Source: Agrococcus sp. SGAir0287 (GTDB lineage Bacteria; Actinomycetota; Actinomycetes; Actinomycetales; Microbacteriaceae). From it: a stretch of DNA of 64,000 nt. The notes under the pieces were generated by a model. The model did not search any database, was not told the origin of the DNA, and saw nothing but the letters and a program-made list of their open reading frames with translations. Position numbers and translations under genes: made by a program. Location of the stretch: the NCBI RefSeq assembly GCF_005484985.1, contig NZ_CP027942.1, positions 1,550,001 through 1,614,000 on the forward strand. The letters are read 5' to 3'. Positions 5,734 through 47,784 of the stretch are shown here, in pieces. The stretch's first letter is position 1, and every line of letters starts with the position of its first letter.

Positions 5734-6201
5734 TTGTCCGACGCGCCGGCCCCAGCGACTCCACCGCATCCCATCCCCGCGTCGGTCGCGGCCGACTCGG
5801 GCGCGTCGTCGCTGCTCGGCGAGCGCGGCCGCGGCGAGCTGGCCGAGCGCATGGGCATCGAGTTCACGGAGCTCTCCGCCGAGCGCTCGGTCGCGACGAT
5901 GCCCGCGGAGGGCAACCGGCAGCCGATCGGACTCATCCACGGCGGCGCCTACTGCGTGCTCGCCGAGTCGCTCGGCTCGATGTCGGCCAACGCGCACGCG
6001 ATCGGCCTCGGCCGCTACGCCGTCGGCATCGACATCAACGCGACGCACACGCGCTCGGTGCGCGAGGGCACGGTGACGGGTACGTGCACGGCCGTGCACC
6101 TCGGCTCGTCGATGACGGTGCACGAGATCGTCATCACCGACGAGTCGGGTGCGCGCGTCTCGACGGCGCGCATCACGAACCTGCTGCGCGACCGCCGCTG
6201 A
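5734..6201 (+). CDS. PaaI-type hotdog-fold thioesterase
   Basis: A 155-residue single hotdog-fold protein of the PaaI/YdiI acyl-CoA thioesterase type. The motif PIGLIHGGAYCVLAESLGSMSAN (about residues 67-89) contains the HGG of the active-site loop and the glutamate expected on the following helix. The later VREGTVTGTCTAVHLG strand is also typical. The start is a TTG preceded by GAGGAG five bases upstream, the only strong Shine-Dalgarno in the region. It lies head-to-head with polA across 47 bp. The physiological substrate is unknown; members hydrolyse aryl- or acyl-CoA thioesters. Confidence 0.88.
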   Translation: MSDAPAPATPPHPIPASVAADSGASSLLGERGRGELAERMGIEFTELSAERSVATMPAEGNRQPIGLIHGGAYCVLAESLGSMSANAHAIGLGRYAVGIDINATHTRSVREGTVTGTCTAVHLGSSMTVHEIVITDESGARVSTARITNLLRDRR

Positions 6202-6220: not shown

Positions 6221-6341
6221 GATCGGTCGAACGGCCACTTCGTGCGCTCGATTGGCGCACATCGGCGCCACTCGCTCATCGATTGGCCCACATGGGCGCC
6301 GCTCGCTCGTCGATCGGCGCACATTGGCGCCAATCGACAGG
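6221..6341 (+). repeat. left array of degenerate 31-bp direct repeats
   Basis: Three consecutive 31-bp units begin with GATTGG or GATCGG at 6250, 6281 and 6312, preceded by a more diverged 29-bp unit at 6221. Shared core: GATTGGCGCACAT followed by GGCGCC. The innermost unit contains a perfect palindrome, ATTGGCGCCAAT, at 6323-6334. The units read toward the neighbouring DUF559 gene, and a matching array in the opposite orientation lies on its other side. A period of 31 is not a multiple of three, so this is not coding. Confidence 0.85.
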
Positions 6342-6372
6342 ACGTCGACACCCGCCCTCCCGACGACGGCCG

Positions 6373-7263
6373 TCAGACGCGTCGCCGTCGCATGGCCGCC
6401 TTCACGAGCGCGACCATGCGACGACCTCCGTCGTGCAGATCCGGCGCCGACACCCGGATGACCTCCCAGCCGGCCTCACGCAGGCGTCGATGCCGCTCCA
6501 CGTCGCGCGCGTACTGGCGAGCGTCCTCGCGGTGGTGCTGACCGTCGTACTCGAGCCCGAGGCGCAGGTCCCTCCATCCCATGTCGAGCCTCCCGATCGA
6601 CGACCCGTCGTCGTCCAGGACCGGCAGCTGCAGCTCCGGCTCCGGGATGCCGGCACGGACGACCAGGAGGCGGACCTTCGTCTCCTGCGGCGACTCCGAG
6701 CCGACGCGGATGGCACCGAGCGCTCGATGCACGCGTGCCATCCCCCGCGCCCCGCGGAACCGCCCGGCGTTGCGGACGAGGTCGCCGATCTCCAGTCGGT
6801 CGGCTCGCGTCCTGGCCACGATCGCGTCGCCGACCGCGACGAGCTCGTCATGGTCGAGCTGCGACGCCACATGCACGAAGCAATCCTCCAAGGACTCGAC
6901 GGGCATCCCGCCGACCTCGACGACGCGAGCTCGGATGCGGTGGCCCACCACATCGGGTCGACGCATCCGGGACGTGTACGAGGGCGATGCGACGTGGATG
7001 GGCAGCAGTCCGATCCGGCCTGGGAGCGGGAGGCCGTGCAAGCGCGCCGCCGTCGCGTGGGACAGGAACTGGTCCGACCTGCGGACCGCGTCGATCGCCG
7101 CCAGCAGGTCGCGATCAGGACCGTTCGACGGGCCGAGCATGCGCGCACCCCACGCCGGCGCGACCAGGGAGCGAGCTCGCAGCTCGTATCGCGTGAAGCC
7201 CTCGTCGAGCGCCTCGCGCACGCTGACGACCCTGTTCGATGCGCGGCGATGCTGCTGGTCCAT
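6373..7263 (-). CDS. AbiEi-like N-domain plus DUF559 endonuclease-fold protein
   Basis: A 296-residue protein. The N-terminal part (to about residue 180) resembles the AbiEi/type IV antitoxin-like module: a short helix-turn-helix region, then LSHATAARLHGLPLPGRIGLLPIHVA, and VESLEDCFVHVA. The C-terminal 110 residues match DUF559, a Vsr-like PD-(D/E)XK nuclease fold: ETKVRLLVVRAGIPEPELQ, then GRLDMGWRDLRLGLEYDGQHH, and DVERHRRLREAGWEVIRV. No AbiEii toxin gene is adjacent. The ATG at 7263 is the first start that gives only recognisable sequence; neither a Shine-Dalgarno nor a -10 is convincing. It is flanked on both sides by inverted 31-bp repeat arrays, suggesting a mobile or self-maintained cassette. 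The biological role is unknown. Confidence 0.8.
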   Translation of the reverse strand: MDQQHRRASNRVVSVREALDEGFTRYELRARSLVAPAWGARMLGPSNGPDRDLLAAIDAVRRSDQFLSHATAARLHGLPLPGRIGLLPIHVASPSYTSRMRRPDVVGHRIRARVVEVGGMPVESLEDCFVHVASQLDHDELVAVGDAIVARTRADRLEIGDLVRNAGRFRGARGMARVHRALGAIRVGSESPQETKVRLLVVRAGIPEPELQLPVLDDDGSSIGRLDMGWRDLRLGLEYDGQHHREDARQYARDVERHRRLREAGWEVIRVSAPDLHDGGRRMVALVKAAMRRRRV

Positions 7264-7410
7264 GCCGCCGACGGTCGCAGAGCGGCGACCAGACCGTGCC
7301 ACGCCCGGCCGACGCTGTGGACGCGAGCGCGCTGTTCGGGAGGCGCGGCCCCGAGGATGGTCGGACCCGAGCCTTCGCGGCAGGCGCATCCGCTGATCGG
7401 AGTCGATCAC

Positions 7411-7534
7411 GGCGACCGGTTGGCGCCAATCAGCGCCAACCGACGGGTCGCTGGCGCACATGCGGGCCAACCGACCGACCGGGGCCGCAGATGTCGGCCA
7501 ATCACCGACCTCGCAGCGCAGACGTCGACCAATC
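7411..7534 (-). repeat. right array of degenerate 31-bp repeats, inverted relative to the left array
   Basis: On the minus strand four exact 31-bp periods begin at 7534, 7503, 7472 and 7441 with GATTGG, GATTGG, GGTTGG and GGTTGG. Their interior matches the left array (GCATNTGCGCC). The unit nearest the gene carries TTGGCGCCAA at 7420-7429, the same palindrome found in the innermost unit of the left array. The 7264-7613 stretch holds no gene that I can support. Outside the repeats I see only unremarkable GC-rich sequence. Confidence 0.85.
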
Positions 7535-7613: not shown

Positions 7614-8258
7614 TCAGCCCTTCTTGCCCTCGCCGAGCTGCTCGATGACCGCGCGGGCGACCTCGCCCATCGTCAGGCGACGGTCCATCGACGCCTTCTG
7701 GATCCAGCGGAACGCCTCCGGCTCCGACAGGCCCATGCGCTGGCCGAGCAGGCCCTTCGCCCGGTCGACGAGCTTGCGCGTCTCGAAGCGCTCCGCGAGG
7801 TCGGCGACCTCGGACTCGAGCGCCTGGATCTGGTCGTAGCGGGCGAGCGCGATCTCGATCGCCGGCAGCAGGTCGTTCGGCGTGAACGGCTTCACGACGT
7901 ACGCGAGCGCACCCGCCTCCGACGCGCGCTCGACGAGCTCCTTCTGCGAGAAGGCCGTGAGCAGCACGACGGGCGCGATCTTGCCCTCCGACAGCCGCTC
8001 CGCCGCGGAGATGCCATCCATCTTCGGCATCTTCACGTCCATGACCACGAGGTCGGGGCGCAGCTCGGTGGCGAGCTCGACGGCACGCTCGCCGTCGCCG
8101 GCCTCGCCGACGATCTCGAAGCCGTTGTCCTGCAGCGTCTCGACGATGTCGAGGCGGATGAGCGACTCGTCCTCGGCGACGACGACGCGGCGCCTCGAGC
8201 CCCCCGTTGCGGCCTTCGGCTCTGGCAGCTCGGGCTCCAGGAACGTGGCATCGGTCAT
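7614..8258 (-). CDS. pdtaR: ANTAR-domain response regulator (PdtaR-like)
   Basis: A 214-residue response regulator. Receiver domain at about 25-140: acidic pair in VVVAEDESLI, phosphoacceptor aspartate in DLVVMDVKMPKMDG, threonine in LLTAF, lysine in YVVKPF. A coiled linker and an ANTAR RNA-binding domain follow (ETRKLVDRAKGLLGQRMGLSEPEAFRWIQKASMDRRLTMGEVA, which I cite as about residues 160-205). ANTAR proteins bind paired hairpins in nascent mRNA and act as antiterminators or translation regulators. The mycobacterial counterpart PdtaR pairs with the kinase PdtaS. No kinase gene is nearby. The transcript is predicted leaderless, from TAGGCT six bases before the ATG. Confidence 0.93.
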   Translation of the reverse strand: MTDATFLEPELPEPKAATGGSRRRVVVAEDESLIRLDIVETLQDNGFEIVGEAGDGERAVELATELRPDLVVMDVKMPKMDGISAAERLSEGKIAPVVLLTAFSQKELVERASEAGALAYVVKPFTPNDLLPAIEIALARYDQIQALESEVADLAERFETRKLVDRAKGLLGQRMGLSEPEAFRWIQKASMDRRLTMGEVARAVIEQLGEGKKG

Positions 8259-8441: not shown

Positions 8442-9950
8442 TCAGAGAGCCGGCGTCGAGGCCGCTCGAGCGCGCTCCTGGGCGACGGTCGGCACCTGGA
8501 TGCGGCTGATGCCGTGGTACGCCTGCGCCGCCTCGTTGTGCACGTCGCCGACGACGTGCACGCGCAGGTCGTTCGTCGAGCCGGCGATGCCGGGAGGCGA
8601 GCCCGAGATGACGACGACCTTCTCGCCCATCGGCACGAGGCCGCGGCCGATGAGGATGTCGTCGGCGAGGCCCATCATGGCGTCGGTGTGCGTCACGCGG
8701 TCGACGAGGAAGGTCTGCATGCCCCAGATGAGCTGCATGCGCGACTCGATCTCCGGGTCGGGCGTGAGCGCGATCGTCGGGATGTGCGAGCGCAGTCGCG
8801 ACATGCGGCGCGCGGAGTCTCCCGACTCGGTGAAGACGACGATCGCCTTCGCCTCGACGAACTCCGCCACCTCGCGCGCGGCGAGCGTGATGGCGCCGCC
8901 CTGCGTGCGCGGCTTCGTGCCGAGCGGCGGGATGCGCGTGATGCCGTGCGCCTCCGTCGACTCGATGATGCGCGCCATGGTCTGGATCGTGACGATCGGG
9001 TACGCGCCCACGCTCGTCTCGCCCGACAGCATGACGGCGTCGGCGCCGTCGAGGATCGCGTTGGCGCAGTCGCTTGCCTCGGCGCGCGTCGGGCGCGGGT
9101 TCTCGATCATCGACTCGAGCACCTGCGTCGCGACGATGACGGGCTTCGCCCAGCGACGCGACAGCTCGACGGCGCGCTTCTGCACGAGCGGCACCTGCTC
9201 GAGCGGCAGCTCGACGCCGAGGTCGCCGCGCGCGACCATGATCGCGTCGAACGCGTCGATGATCTCGGCGAGGTTGTCGACGGCCTGCGGCTTCTCGATC
9301 TTCGCGACGACGGGCAGGCGACGCCCCTCCTCGTCCATGATCTCGTGCACGCGCTGGATGTCGGCGGCGTCGCGCACGAACGACAGCGCGATGATGTCGG
9401 CGCCGAGCTGGAGCGCCCAGCGCAGGTCGGCCTCGTCCTTGTCGGACAGCGCGGGCACGTTCACGGCGACGCCGGGCAGGTTGATGCCCTTGTTGTCGCT
9501 CACCTTGCCGCCCACGACGACCTTCGTCACGACGCGCACGCCGTCGGTCGACACGACCTCGAGCGCGATGCGCCCGTCGTCGATGAGCAGCGGGTCGCCG
9601 GGCTTCACGTCGGCGGGCAGGCCCTTGAACGTCGTGGAGACGACGTCCTTGTCGCCGGGCACGTCCTCCGTCGTGATCGTGAAGGTGTCGCCGTCGGCGA
9701 GCATCTGGGGGCCCGCGGCGATCTTGCCCAGGCGGATCTTCGGACCCTGCAGGTCGACGAGGATGCCCACGGGCATGCCCAGCTCGTCGGACGCCTTGCG
9801 GATGTCCTCGTAGACGGCCTCGTGCACCGGGTAGGCGCCGTGGCTCAGGTTCAGGCGGGCGACGTTGACGCCGGCCGCGATCGCGGCCTTCGTCTGCTCG
9901 TAGCCCGACAGCGCCGGCCCGAAGGTGGCGACGATCTTCGCTCGTCTCAT
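8442..9950 (-). CDS. pyk: pyruvate kinase
   Basis: A 502-residue pyruvate kinase, making pyruvate and ATP from phosphoenolpyruvate and ADP in the cytoplasm. The start MRRAKIVATFGPA is the canonical N-terminus; a longer frame upstream would read through the intergenic hairpin. Visible motifs: VARLNLSHG, MVARGDLGVELPLEQVPLVQK (Mg and substrate site), VIVATQVLESMIENPRPTRAE, and the C-terminal allosteric domain with VVISGSPPG. GAGAGAG lies a few bases before the ATG. The protein is slightly longer than the usual 470-480 residues because of a C-terminal tail. The gene is separated from gltD by a perfect 15-bp-stem hairpin, so it probably has its own promoter. Confidence 0.96.
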   Translation of the reverse strand: MRRAKIVATFGPALSGYEQTKAAIAAGVNVARLNLSHGAYPVHEAVYEDIRKASDELGMPVGILVDLQGPKIRLGKIAAGPQMLADGDTFTITTEDVPGDKDVVSTTFKGLPADVKPGDPLLIDDGRIALEVVSTDGVRVVTKVVVGGKVSDNKGINLPGVAVNVPALSDKDEADLRWALQLGADIIALSFVRDAADIQRVHEIMDEEGRRLPVVAKIEKPQAVDNLAEIIDAFDAIMVARGDLGVELPLEQVPLVQKRAVELSRRWAKPVIVATQVLESMIENPRPTRAEASDCANAILDGADAVMLSGETSVGAYPIVTIQTMARIIESTEAHGITRIPPLGTKPRTQGGAITLAAREVAEFVEAKAIVVFTESGDSARRMSRLRSHIPTIALTPDPEIESRMQLIWGMQTFLVDRVTHTDAMMGLADDILIGRGLVPMGEKVVVISGSPPGIAGSTNDLRVHVVGDVHNEAAQAYHGISRIQVPTVAQERARAASTPAL

Positions 9951-9967
9951 TGCTCTCTCTCGCACGT

Positions 9968-10001
9968 GACTCGACTGCGGCACGCATGCCGCAGTCGAGT
10001 C
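9968..10001 (-). terminator. hairpin terminator of the gltBD unit
   Basis: A perfect 15-bp stem (GACTCGACTGCGGCA with its complement) surrounds a four-base loop, ten bases past the gltD stop codon. No U-tract follows, as is common in GC-rich actinobacteria. Confidence 0.75.
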
Positions 10002-10010
10002 TTCCACTGG

Positions 10011-43111: not shown

Positions 43112-43945
43112 CCGGGCGGGCACGGCACGAGGTCTCGTGACGGCAGCAGCCTGCGGCTGCGGCCTCCTCGACCAGCTGGTGGAAGGCACGCCGATACTCG
43201 GGACCCTTTCGAGGCTCGCTGCGCTCGCACCTCAAGGGCCGGTAGTGCGGCAGTCGCGCCCTGTCAGCCGGTCGAGGAGCGCGCGAGCCGCCAGGCGAGC
43301 ACGCATCACGAGACCACGCGAGCACCGCTCCCACCGAGCCGCGCGCGTGGCTAGGTCGGGCGGGCACGGCACGAGGTCTCGTGACGGCAGCAGCCTGCGG
43401 CTGCGGCCTCCTCGACCAGCTGCGTGCGGGCACCCCTGGACGAGGATCGGCACCCCCACAGCCGGTCGAGGAGCGCGCGAGCCGCCAGGCGAGCACGCGT
43501 CACGAGACCACGCGACCGCCGCTCCCGCCCAGCCACGCGCCAGGCCGGATCGGGCGGGCACGGCACGAGGTCTCGTGACGGCAGCAGCCTGCGGCTGCGG
43601 CCTCCTCGACCAGCTGCGTGCGGGCACCCCTGGACGAGGATCGGCACCCCCACCAGCCGGTCGAGGAGCGCGAGCCGCCAGGCGAGCACGCGTCACGAGA
43701 CCACGCGACCGCCGCTCCCGCCCAGCCACGCGCCAGGCCGCGCCGAGCGGGCACGTCACGAGGTCTCGTGACGGCAGCAGCCTGCGGCTGCGGCCTCCTC
43801 GACCAGCTGCGTGCGGGCGCCCCTGGACGAGGATCGGCACCCCCCACCAGCAGGTCGAGGAGCGCGAGCCGCCAGGCGAGCACGCGTCACGAGACCACGA
43901 GACCGCCGCTCCCACCCAGCCGCGCGCGCGGTCGGGTCGGGCGAC
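43112..43945. repeat. four-copy REP/BIME-like repeat array between aroB and aroQ
   Basis: Four copies of a compound repeat start with GAGGTCTCGTGACGGCAGCA at 43129, 43373, 43567 and 43760, giving spacings of 244, 194 and 193 bp. Each copy has a left arm (GGTCTCGTGACG to CTCCTCGACCAGCT) and an inverted right arm (AGCCGGTCGAGGAGC to CGTCACGAGACC), so single strands could form long hairpins. The first copy has a different, longer central spacer. No gene is supported in the 43064-43962 gap. Open frames across it simply mirror the repeat. Confidence 0.9.
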
Positions 43946-46755: not shown

Positions 46756-47532
46756 TCAGGCGGCGGCGACCATCGCGGCCCAGACCTCGTCCTCGCGCTC
46801 GACGGGCGCCTCGGGATCGCCGTGCACGAAGATGCGCACCTGCCGCAGCGCCTGGTGCAGCAGCATCGCGAGGCCCGGCACGAGCGGCGCGACGCCCTCG
46901 TACCTGCTGCTGCCGGAGGCGTAGTCGGCGTCGAGGATCGCGCGCGGGCCCTCGAGCGCGGGCGTCACCTGCGCGGCGGCGGGCAGCGTGCTGACGACCG
47001 CGTCGCCGACGAGCGGCGCCGCGTCGGGACCGAGCACGCGGACATCGACGCCGAGCTCCGCGCCCAGCGCGGCCAGGCGATCGCCCTTCGTCGGGGTGCG
47101 CAGCCACGCGTCGACGCGGTCCGCGCCCATCTGCGCGAGGGCGCACAGCGCCGACAGGGCCGTCGCTCCTCCGCCGACGATGGCGCCCCGGTGGACGCCC
47201 CCGACGCCGGAGGCAGCGAACGCGTCGACGATGCCCGCGACGTCGGTGTTCCACGCGGCCCGCAGGTCGACGCGCAGCGTGTTGGCGGCGCCCGTGCGGG
47301 TCACGAGTGCGTCGCGCTCGCTCGCCCACGCCGCGGCCGCCTCCTTGAGCGGCGCCGTCACCGACAGGCCGCGCCAGTCGGGGCCGAGCCCGTCGACGAA
47401 GCCCACGACCTCGTCGGCCGCGAGCCGCTCGCGCCCGTAGGCCCAGTCCAGCCCGAGCACGCGGTACGCGGCGACGTGGATGCGCGGCGAGCGCGAGTGG
47501 TCGATCGGATCGCCGATCACTGCGAGCCGCAT
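46756..47532 (-). CDS. aroE: shikimate dehydrogenase
   Basis: A 258-residue NADP-linked reductase of 3-dehydroshikimate. Substrate site: [20 protein letters not shown] and the catalytic-lysine motif [13 protein letters not shown]. The substrate-binding asparagine and aspartate are in AANTLRV and WNTDVAGI. The dinucleotide loop is [22 protein letters not shown] lies six bases before the ATG. The start region, including codons 1-7, is tandemly duplicated upstream with a 71-bp period. It lies downstream of mltG. Confidence 0.95.
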
Positions 47533-47784
47533 GACGCACCTCCCAGCCATCCAATGCTTGTGGACGTGCACGTCGGCCGGCTTCCGATCACCGCGAGCCG
47601 CATGACGCACCCCCCAGCCATCCAGCCCTTGTGCACGTGCACGTCGACCGGCTTCCGATCACCGCGAGCCGCATGACGCACCCCCCAGCCATCCAGCCCT
47701 TGTGCACGTGCACGTCGACCGGCTTCCGATCACGGCGAGCCGCATGACGCACCCCCTGAGGATCCGCTCCCGATCACCGCGAGC
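47513..47784. repeat. 71-bp tandem repeat duplicating the aroE start region
   Basis: The marker CATGACGCACC recurs with exact 71-base spacing, its ATGACG beginning at 47531, 47602, 47673 and 47744. A short remnant of the unit's first 15 bases follows at 47770. Read on the minus strand, each copy repeats a ribosome site, ATG CGG CTC and the next few aroE codons. Two interior copies are nearly identical. Each contains GTGCACGTGCAC, a 12-bp palindrome, with one mismatch in the copy nearest aroE. The array fills most of the mltG-aroE gap; no gene is supported there. Confidence 0.88.

What the first reader, a model, noticed from the sequence alone, without database searches (positions are those of the whole stretch)
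6221..7534. DUF559/AbiEi-like gene enclosed by two converging arrays of 31-bp repeats
Left array units start at 6250, 6281 and 6312 on the plus strand. Right array units start at 7534, 7503, 7472 and 7441 on the minus strand. Both have an exact 31-bp period and share the core GATTGGCGCACAT...GCGCC, and both point inward to the same gene. There are no spacers, and 31 is not a multiple of three. Matched, oppositely oriented arrays around a single nuclease-fold gene suggest a cassette whose product recognises or maintains the repeats. I infer mobility or self-regulation; the sequence shows only the arrangement.
Basis: partly seen in the sequence, partly recalled or inferred. Interest (0 to 1): 0.72.

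Follow-up and report, generated by a model that had tools for sequence, protein, structure and literature searches.

The report
Nuclease gene with dispersed partner repeats
In Agrococcus and some other actinobacteria, small genes for a likely DNA-cutting enzyme sit between palindromic or tandem repeats, and the same repeats are scattered through genomes that carry the matching gene, which suggests an enzyme-and-repeat partnership.

Summary
The two converging 31-bp arrays are real, and the arrangement recurs. The gene encodes an AbiEi-like half joined to a Vsr/I-Bth0305I-type nuclease half (Pfam MTES_1575/DUF559). Of 82 homologous loci in 24 Agrococcus genomes, 53 have matching inverted repeats on both flanks above the 99% level of 1705 random blocks, 55 after correcting two misplaced flanks. 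Nuclease lineages have their own repeats: a palindrome, or an array mostly of period 20. Seven flank-derived repeats were searched in whole genomes. They concentrate in genomes holding a nuclease of that lineage and are rare elsewhere, with two discrepancies (G021, G022). Of 36 dispersed palindromes, none lay inside a gene. RAYT-type transposases: 0 of 24 genomes. The cassette keeps fixed sites but is reversed between species at three. Repeat similarity tracks the AbiEi-like half more than the nuclease half. It looks like a REP/RAYT-type partnership built on an unrelated enzyme. Association is shown; recognition and nuclease-driven spread are inferred. Mobility of the 1.3-kb block itself is not supported, and the window's own repeat has only one further exact copy in its genome.

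The parts
6373..7263 (-). Nuclease gene, 296 aa: AbiEi-like half plus Vsr-type nuclease half (MTES_1575/DUF559)
   Evidence: conserved residues
6706..7263 (-). Codes residues 1-186: AbiEi-like fold, candidate repeat-recognition half
6376..6699 (-). Codes residues 189-296: nuclease domain
6248..6340 (+). Left array: three 31-bp units, beyond the gene's 3' end
6310..6337 (.). Palindromic innermost unit of the left array; similar copy at G000:C1:742385
7411..7534 (-). Right array: four degenerate 31-bp units, upstream of the gene
7418..7441 (.). Palindromic innermost unit of the right array
5734..6201 (+). Flanking thioesterase-superfamily gene (Pfam 4HBT): one edge of the conserved site
7614..8258 (-). 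Flanking response-regulator gene with ANTAR domain: other edge of the conserved site

Best explanation
The block is the source locus of a repeat-enzyme partnership that works like a REP/RAYT 'REPtron' but uses an unrelated enzyme. Shown: many nuclease genes of this family are flanked on both sides by inverted copies of a lineage-specific palindrome or tandem array, and that repeat is dispersed, mainly between genes, in genomes that hold a nuclease of that lineage and little elsewhere. Inferred: the AbiEi-like half binds the repeat; the Vsr/homing-type half then nicks or cuts at or beside it. Repair copies repeat units between sites, which would spread new copies, lengthen arrays, keep copies within a genome alike and flip the gene between its inverted flanks. 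Array periods, mostly 20 and some 31/32 (near two or three helical turns), would put neighbouring units on about the same DNA face. The upstream copy probably also serves as operator for self-repression. The gene stays at fixed sites; the repeat is the moving part.
For: Both-flank inverted repeats: 53 of 82 loci above the 99% null, 27 of 31 among homologs at 44% identity or more; 55 and 29 after the flank correction; 12 of 29 survey loci above the same score. Dispersal: TGAGGTTTTCGGCCC 24/18/50 hits in G000/G009/G022, 2 in the other 21 genomes; GTGTCAGSTTGTTGC 26 in G002, 6 in the other 23, two of these beside related nucleases, backwards control 3 in all; GATTGGGCAGTARTGGTTCG 17 and 21 in G000/G009, 1 in G022, 0 in 21; GATGGAAAAGTCCCGAC 10 in G013, 0 in 23; 20-bp unit 24-86 hits in 10 genomes, 0-3 in 14, control 0-6; in another family AGAAGTGGGGCACCTGAG 10 in G040, 1 in the other 21. 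Window palindrome exact only in G000/G009/G022. No Y1 transposase in 24 genomes. Reversed orientation with flanks 90-94% identical at one site, 78-83% and 68-83% at two others. Repeat similarity and N-half identity: Spearman 0.46, partial given C-half 0.35, permutation p 0.001; partial with C-half 0.06. Different nucleases in one genome have dissimilar repeats (44 pairs, median score 16, highest 43).
Against: No binding, cutting or copying was observed. 27 of 82 congeneric loci fail the flank test even after correction, among them 8 of the 10 loci of one orthologous site, S1. Only 12 of 82 have a long hairpin on both sides. In the wider survey 17 of 29 loci fail. The window's own palindrome has one further exact place in its genome. 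In G021 the 20-bp unit is abundant although its sampled nuclease carries a related but different unit; in G022 the dispersed core palindrome differs from the core beside its nuclease. Three dispersed sites compared across three sister species were occupied in all, one copy being worn, so fresh insertion was not caught cleanly. Much of the repeat-protein covariation comes from orthologs sharing descent; the N-half may simply resolve phylogeny better. Reversals at the more diverged sites could be separate insertions.
Confidence: 0.55

Rival explanations
1. Sequence-specific regulator: the AbiEi-like protein binds its flanking repeats to repress itself and binds dispersed copies to shape transcription or chromosome structure. 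Copies arise by ordinary slippage and gene conversion; the nuclease half acts elsewhere (e.g. on invading DNA).
For: N-half resembles AbiEi, whose S. agalactiae member autoregulates through inverted repeats (PMC7319586, start of abstract in a search listing); in the examples aligned the upstream repeats mostly lie within about 300 bp before the estimated start; dispersed sites are shared between sister species.
Against: Does not explain the equal copy on the 3' side, the restriction of each family to cognate genomes, or copies between convergent genes (17 of 36). Nuclease motif residues are conserved.
Confidence: 0.2
2. The repeats are ordinary host terminators or REP-like elements spread by something else, and the nuclease gene merely sits between two of them.
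For: Dispersed copies lie mostly between convergent or codirectional genes, 33 of 36, and form strong hairpins.
Against: No run of four T within the 25 bases beyond either arm in 36 of 36 copies; the same stretches hold other hairpins without the family motif. In G000, G009 and G022 the closest pair of sites in the list, about 1.05 kb apart, is the nuclease pair. Sampled nuclease lineages have their own repeat families. No Y1 transposase; other transposases were not searched.
Confidence: 0.12
3. The cassette is an insertion element: arrays are terminal inverted repeats and the nuclease is its transposase; lone repeats are remnants.
Confidence: 0.06
4. Anti-phage or toxin-antitoxin unit in which chromosomal repeats mark self DNA or titrate the nuclease.
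For: AbiEi is an antitoxin of an abortive-infection system (PMC3985639, start of abstract in the listing); PMC3710099 (passages) describes MTES_1575 as a Vsr-type REase in a multidomain HEPN protein.
Against: No PADLOC match; the two neighbouring genes are a thioesterase and a response regulator; fixed sites.
Confidence: 0.07

Closest known systems
REP/RAYT (TnpA-REP) systems, 'REPtrons'
   Same: Gene that mostly stays single and shows no mobility, flanked by palindromes that are also dispersed, extragenic and mainly downstream of ORFs; abundance depends on the cognate gene, with deviations where gene-flanking copies mutated (PMC3733652 abstract and passages; PMC8266576 passages; PMC3686654 abstract).
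   Different: Enzyme is an AbiEi/Vsr-type protein, not an HUH tyrosine transposase; no GTAG tag (4 of 36 copies have GTAG near the palindrome); long palindromes or tandem arrays; tens of hits per genome, where PMC3686654 speaks of tens to over a thousand.
Homing endonuclease I-Bth0305I / Vsr endonuclease
   Different: Fused to an AbiEi-like half; flanked by its own repeats; no intron was looked for or seen.
AbiEi antitoxin (type IV TA)
   Different: No toxin gene next to it; C-terminal nuclease; repeats on both sides and dispersed.
CGTC-tagged REPs
   Same: Dispersed palindromes for which no dedicated transposase is known (PMC3733652 abstract).
   Different: CGTC occurs near 18 of 36 copies, position not checked; here a flanked partner gene exists.

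Membership tests
REP/RAYT system | Encodes a Y1/HUH tyrosine transposase (PF01797) | tested here: not met
   0 of 24 Agrococcus genomes at E <= 0.001; 5 of 14 control genomes match
REP/RAYT system | Gene flanked by inverted copies of the repeat | tested here: met
   53 of 82 loci above the 99% null, 55 after correction; 12 of 29 in the survey; not universal
REP/RAYT system | Repeats dispersed, extragenic, tied to the cognate gene | tested here: met
   with exceptions G021 and G022; 0 of 36 fetched sites inside a gene, 1 undetermined, by a rough gene finder
REP/RAYT system | GTAG tag next to the palindrome | tested here: not met
   GTAG within 40 bases of the centre in 4 of 36 copies
CGTC-tagged REPs | CGTC tag next to the palindrome | tested here: inconclusive
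   CGTC within 40 bases in 18 of 36 copies; position and chance level not examined
MTES_1575 / DUF559 nuclease family | Profile match above the curated cut-off | tested here: inconclusive
   Window protein 32 vs 38.2 and 19.1 vs 20.6 bits; its database entry P0001 carries PF18741 precomputed; 40 and 34 of 56 members match at E <= 0.01
MTES_1575 / DUF559 nuclease family | Vsr-type fold with conserved acidic residues | tested here: met
AbiE type IV toxin-antitoxin | AbiEi-like DNA-binding protein | tested here: inconclusive
AbiE type IV toxin-antitoxin | Adjacent AbiEii toxin gene | tested here: not met
   Both adjacent genes are other families
Insertion sequence / transposon | Same element at differing sites, with target duplication | tested here: inconclusive
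   Homologs at several sites, but sites shared between species; target duplication not searched systematically
CRISPR or other spacer array | Repeats separated by unique spacers | tested here: not met
   Head-to-tail units without spacers

The most novel reading that the evidence does not exclude
A second, independent class of REP-like systems: an AbiEi-Vsr nuclease recognises its palindrome as double-stranded DNA, cuts there, and spreads the palindrome or its tandem arrays by break repair. Enzyme specificity and genome-wide repeat sequence evolve together, and many unexplained palindromic or short tandem families in Actinomycetes belong to such pairs.
Probability: 0.4. Interest if true: 0.9.

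Novelty: new variant of a known kind. Interest (0 to 1): 0.8.

Why it matters
[quoted passage not shown] A nuclease-type partner with repeats in cis and trans would give many natural enzyme-repeat pairs with differing sequences, so recognition and spread can be tested directly by swapping halves between paralogs. It would also give a role to part of a very common actinobacterial family now named only DUF559 or 'endonuclease domain-containing' (107 of 148 class genomes have a homolog at E <= 1e-20).

Tried and rejected
CRISPR-like array: no spacers. RAYT-driven REPs: no PF01797 in 24 genomes. Known defence system: no PADLOC match. Simple wandering transposon: fixed sites. A hairpin-only criterion was too narrow, because array-type flanks lack long hairpins (12 of 82 on both sides, 29 of 82 on at least one; background 28 hairpins in 218,711 bases). 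The 29 loci that failed the first flank test were re-read for hairpins: 8 have one downstream, 3 upstream. Two of those 29 (L067, L092, interrupted copies) had failed only because my script placed the upstream flank inside the gene; with the flank corrected they score 169 and 54. Three loci have flanks cut by contig ends: L047 and L084 fail, L086 passes. The 82 loci are those I fetched; one search counts 94 matches in these 24 genomes, some being pieces of one gene, and G000's fifth match was not examined. The 2 hits outside the three sister genomes lie in sequence shared by two species and show no palindrome. A direct in/out comparison of dispersed sites was tried at A, B and D: all three species were occupied at each (G000's copy at D is worn); at A, G022 holds one extra palindrome beside one shared with G009. 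In the class survey the cross-locus null is inflated at its top by shared motifs (99% = 81, 3 of 29 pass; 95% = 34, 17 of 29 pass), so I quote the Agrococcus-block threshold beside it; two of these 29 (L254, L259) are places already seen. Foldseek alone gave no match at E <= 0.001, and its two top rows were mitoribosome entries. Profile against PDB: 3hrl E 8.6e-5, 3r3p 0.047. Literature: searches listed no paper that I recognised as linking DUF559/MTES_1575 to dispersed palindromes; only open-licence PMC papers are searched.

Full report
What is there. The window is bases 1,550,001-1,614,000 of a 3.08-Mb genome (G000). The genus is taken to be Agrococcus: the closest named locus is A. jejuensis DE0131, whose contig has the same length as a contig of G009, a congener. 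The gene at 6373-7263 (-) lies between two head-to-tail arrays with an exact 31-bp step, converging on it. Neither array's lag-31 identity is reached elsewhere in the window. The right array is degenerate. In both arrays the unit nearest the gene is a palindrome.

The arrangement recurs. 48 of 60 relatives hold homologs, often several per genome. I compared upstream flank with reverse-complemented downstream flank (450 nt each) at 82 loci from 24 Agrococcus genomes. 53 exceed the 99th percentile of 1705 overlapping random blocks: 27 of 31 among homologs at 44% identity or more, 6 of 9 at 36-44%, 20 of 42 below. Two interrupted copies had been tested with a misplaced flank; corrected, they pass, giving 55 of 82 and 29 of 31. 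Flanks are tandem arrays or single long palindromes. Among 39 flanks of passing loci with a detected array the period is 20 in 31, 21, 31 or 32 in 4, and 25, 36 or 41 in 4. Units differ between loci, while left and right match. Outside the genus six of twelve loci reach the same score, with somewhat longer flanks (L024, L026, L027, L030, L033, L140). In a class-wide search 107 of 148 genomes have a homolog; of 29 non-self loci fetched there 12 exceed the threshold. The 27 remaining failures in the genus include 8 of the 10 loci of one orthologous site, so the pairing is common, not universal.

The repeats are dispersed. Seven repeats taken from nuclease flanks were searched in whole genomes. 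TGAGGTTTTCGGCCC (flanks of L037, L053, L051): 24, 18 and 50 hits in G000, G009 and G022, 2 in the other 21 genomes, those two without palindrome. GTGTCAGSTTGTTGC (L059): 26 in G002, 6 in the other 23, of which those in G001 and G005 lie beside nucleases of the same clade; the backwards control gives 3. GATTGGGCAGTARTGGTTCG (L035, L041): 17 in G000, 21 in G009, 1 in G022, 0 in 21. GATGGAAAAGTCCCGAC (L079): 10 in G013, four at the gene, 0 in 23. AGAAGTGGGGCACCTGAG (L024, another family): 10 in G040, four at the gene, 1 in the other 21; the six distant copies are imperfect palindromes. The 20-bp unit GAGTGGCGCCTCCCGC: 24-86 hits in ten genomes, 0-3 in fourteen, control 0-6; all nine further places fetched in G012 are arrays. 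The window's own palindrome: exact only in G000 (3 places, two of them its own arrays), G009 (3, two at its nuclease) and G022 (10); looser hits elsewhere are near the control level. Exceptions: G021 has the 20-bp unit although its sampled nuclease carries a related but different one; G022's dispersed core differs from the core beside its nuclease.

Where the copies lie. By a simple codon-usage gene finder of mine, checked on part of the window, 36 dispersed palindromes with fetched loci gave 17 convergent, 16 codirectional, 2 divergent and 1 undetermined context, none inside a gene. None has a run of four T within the 25 bases beyond either arm; GTAG lies near 4 and CGTC near 18 of them. The same stretches contain other hairpins without the family motif.

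Site history. Between the response-regulator and thioesterase genes 18 of 24 genomes hold the cassette, 5 do not, 1 is cut by a contig end. At this spot G013 has about 10 bp, and G002 has a lone palindrome of the L059 family. Clusters of 18, 10, 8, 5, 4 and fewer loci share both flanks, so cassettes are mostly inherited in place. At three sites the gene is reversed relative to its neighbours between species: 19 pairs, five checked with one collinear control. For L035 against L043 the flanks are 93% and 90% identical and the switch points fall within the repeat elements. The tree, whose support values I did not read, groups the window-site genes of G000, G009 and G022 with the genes at another site (S3) of the same genomes rather than with the other window-site genes, as gene conversion between paralogs would give. 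At three dispersed sites compared (A, B, D) all three sister species are occupied, with inner halves or cores differing between them.

Repeat and protein vary together. Over 52 passing loci (53 less one near a contig end) repeat similarity correlates with identity of the N-half (0.46) more than of the C-half (0.32); partial correlations 0.35 and 0.06; permutation p 0.001 for the first. Orthologs contribute much of this signal, so it supports but does not prove recognition. Different nucleases within one genome have dissimilar repeats (median score 16 over 44 pairs).

Reading. The layout resembles REP/RAYT systems: a stay-at-home gene flanked by palindromes, with extragenic copies whose abundance follows the cognate gene (PMC3733652 abstract and passages; PMC3686654 abstract; PMC8266576 passages). 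The defining enzyme is missing: 0 of 24 genomes have PF01797. It therefore works like a REPtron but is not a member. The likeliest mechanism is repeat recognition by the AbiEi-like half, cutting by the Vsr-like half, and repair-driven copying, homogenising and flipping. Binding, cutting and copying are inferred. A regulator-only reading is the main rival.

For the window's own cassette the case is indirect: its right array is worn, and its exact palindrome occurs at one other place in its genome, beside a glycosyltransferase gene together with units of a similar motif.

Noticed in passing
window 43265-43943: Tandem repeat of 194 bp, 3.5 copies, 93% matches.
   Followed up: no
window 47513-47756: Tandem repeat of 71 bp, 3.4 copies, 95% matches.
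   Followed up: no
window 9968-10001: 34-bp palindrome near the start of the gene at 8442-9950 or 8442-10007 (-).
   Followed up: no
L067 (G006) and L092 (G018): Nuclease copies whose reading frame is interrupted, yet with matching repeats still on both flanks (scores 169 and 54).
   Followed up: partly
L038 (G000:C1:740000-745000): Two clusters of GATTGGCGACTTC-like units about 2.6 kb apart around a glycosyltransferase gene; no nuclease homolog found there by tblastn.
   Followed up: partly
L255, L256, L258, L262, L264, L267: Nuclease-flanking repeats in other genomes of the class share GATCAT, perhaps one widespread repeat type.
   Followed up: no
L222:7466-7585 (G022): Two palindromes of different subfamily side by side where G009 has only the second: a possible single-palindrome gain or loss.
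   Followed up: partly
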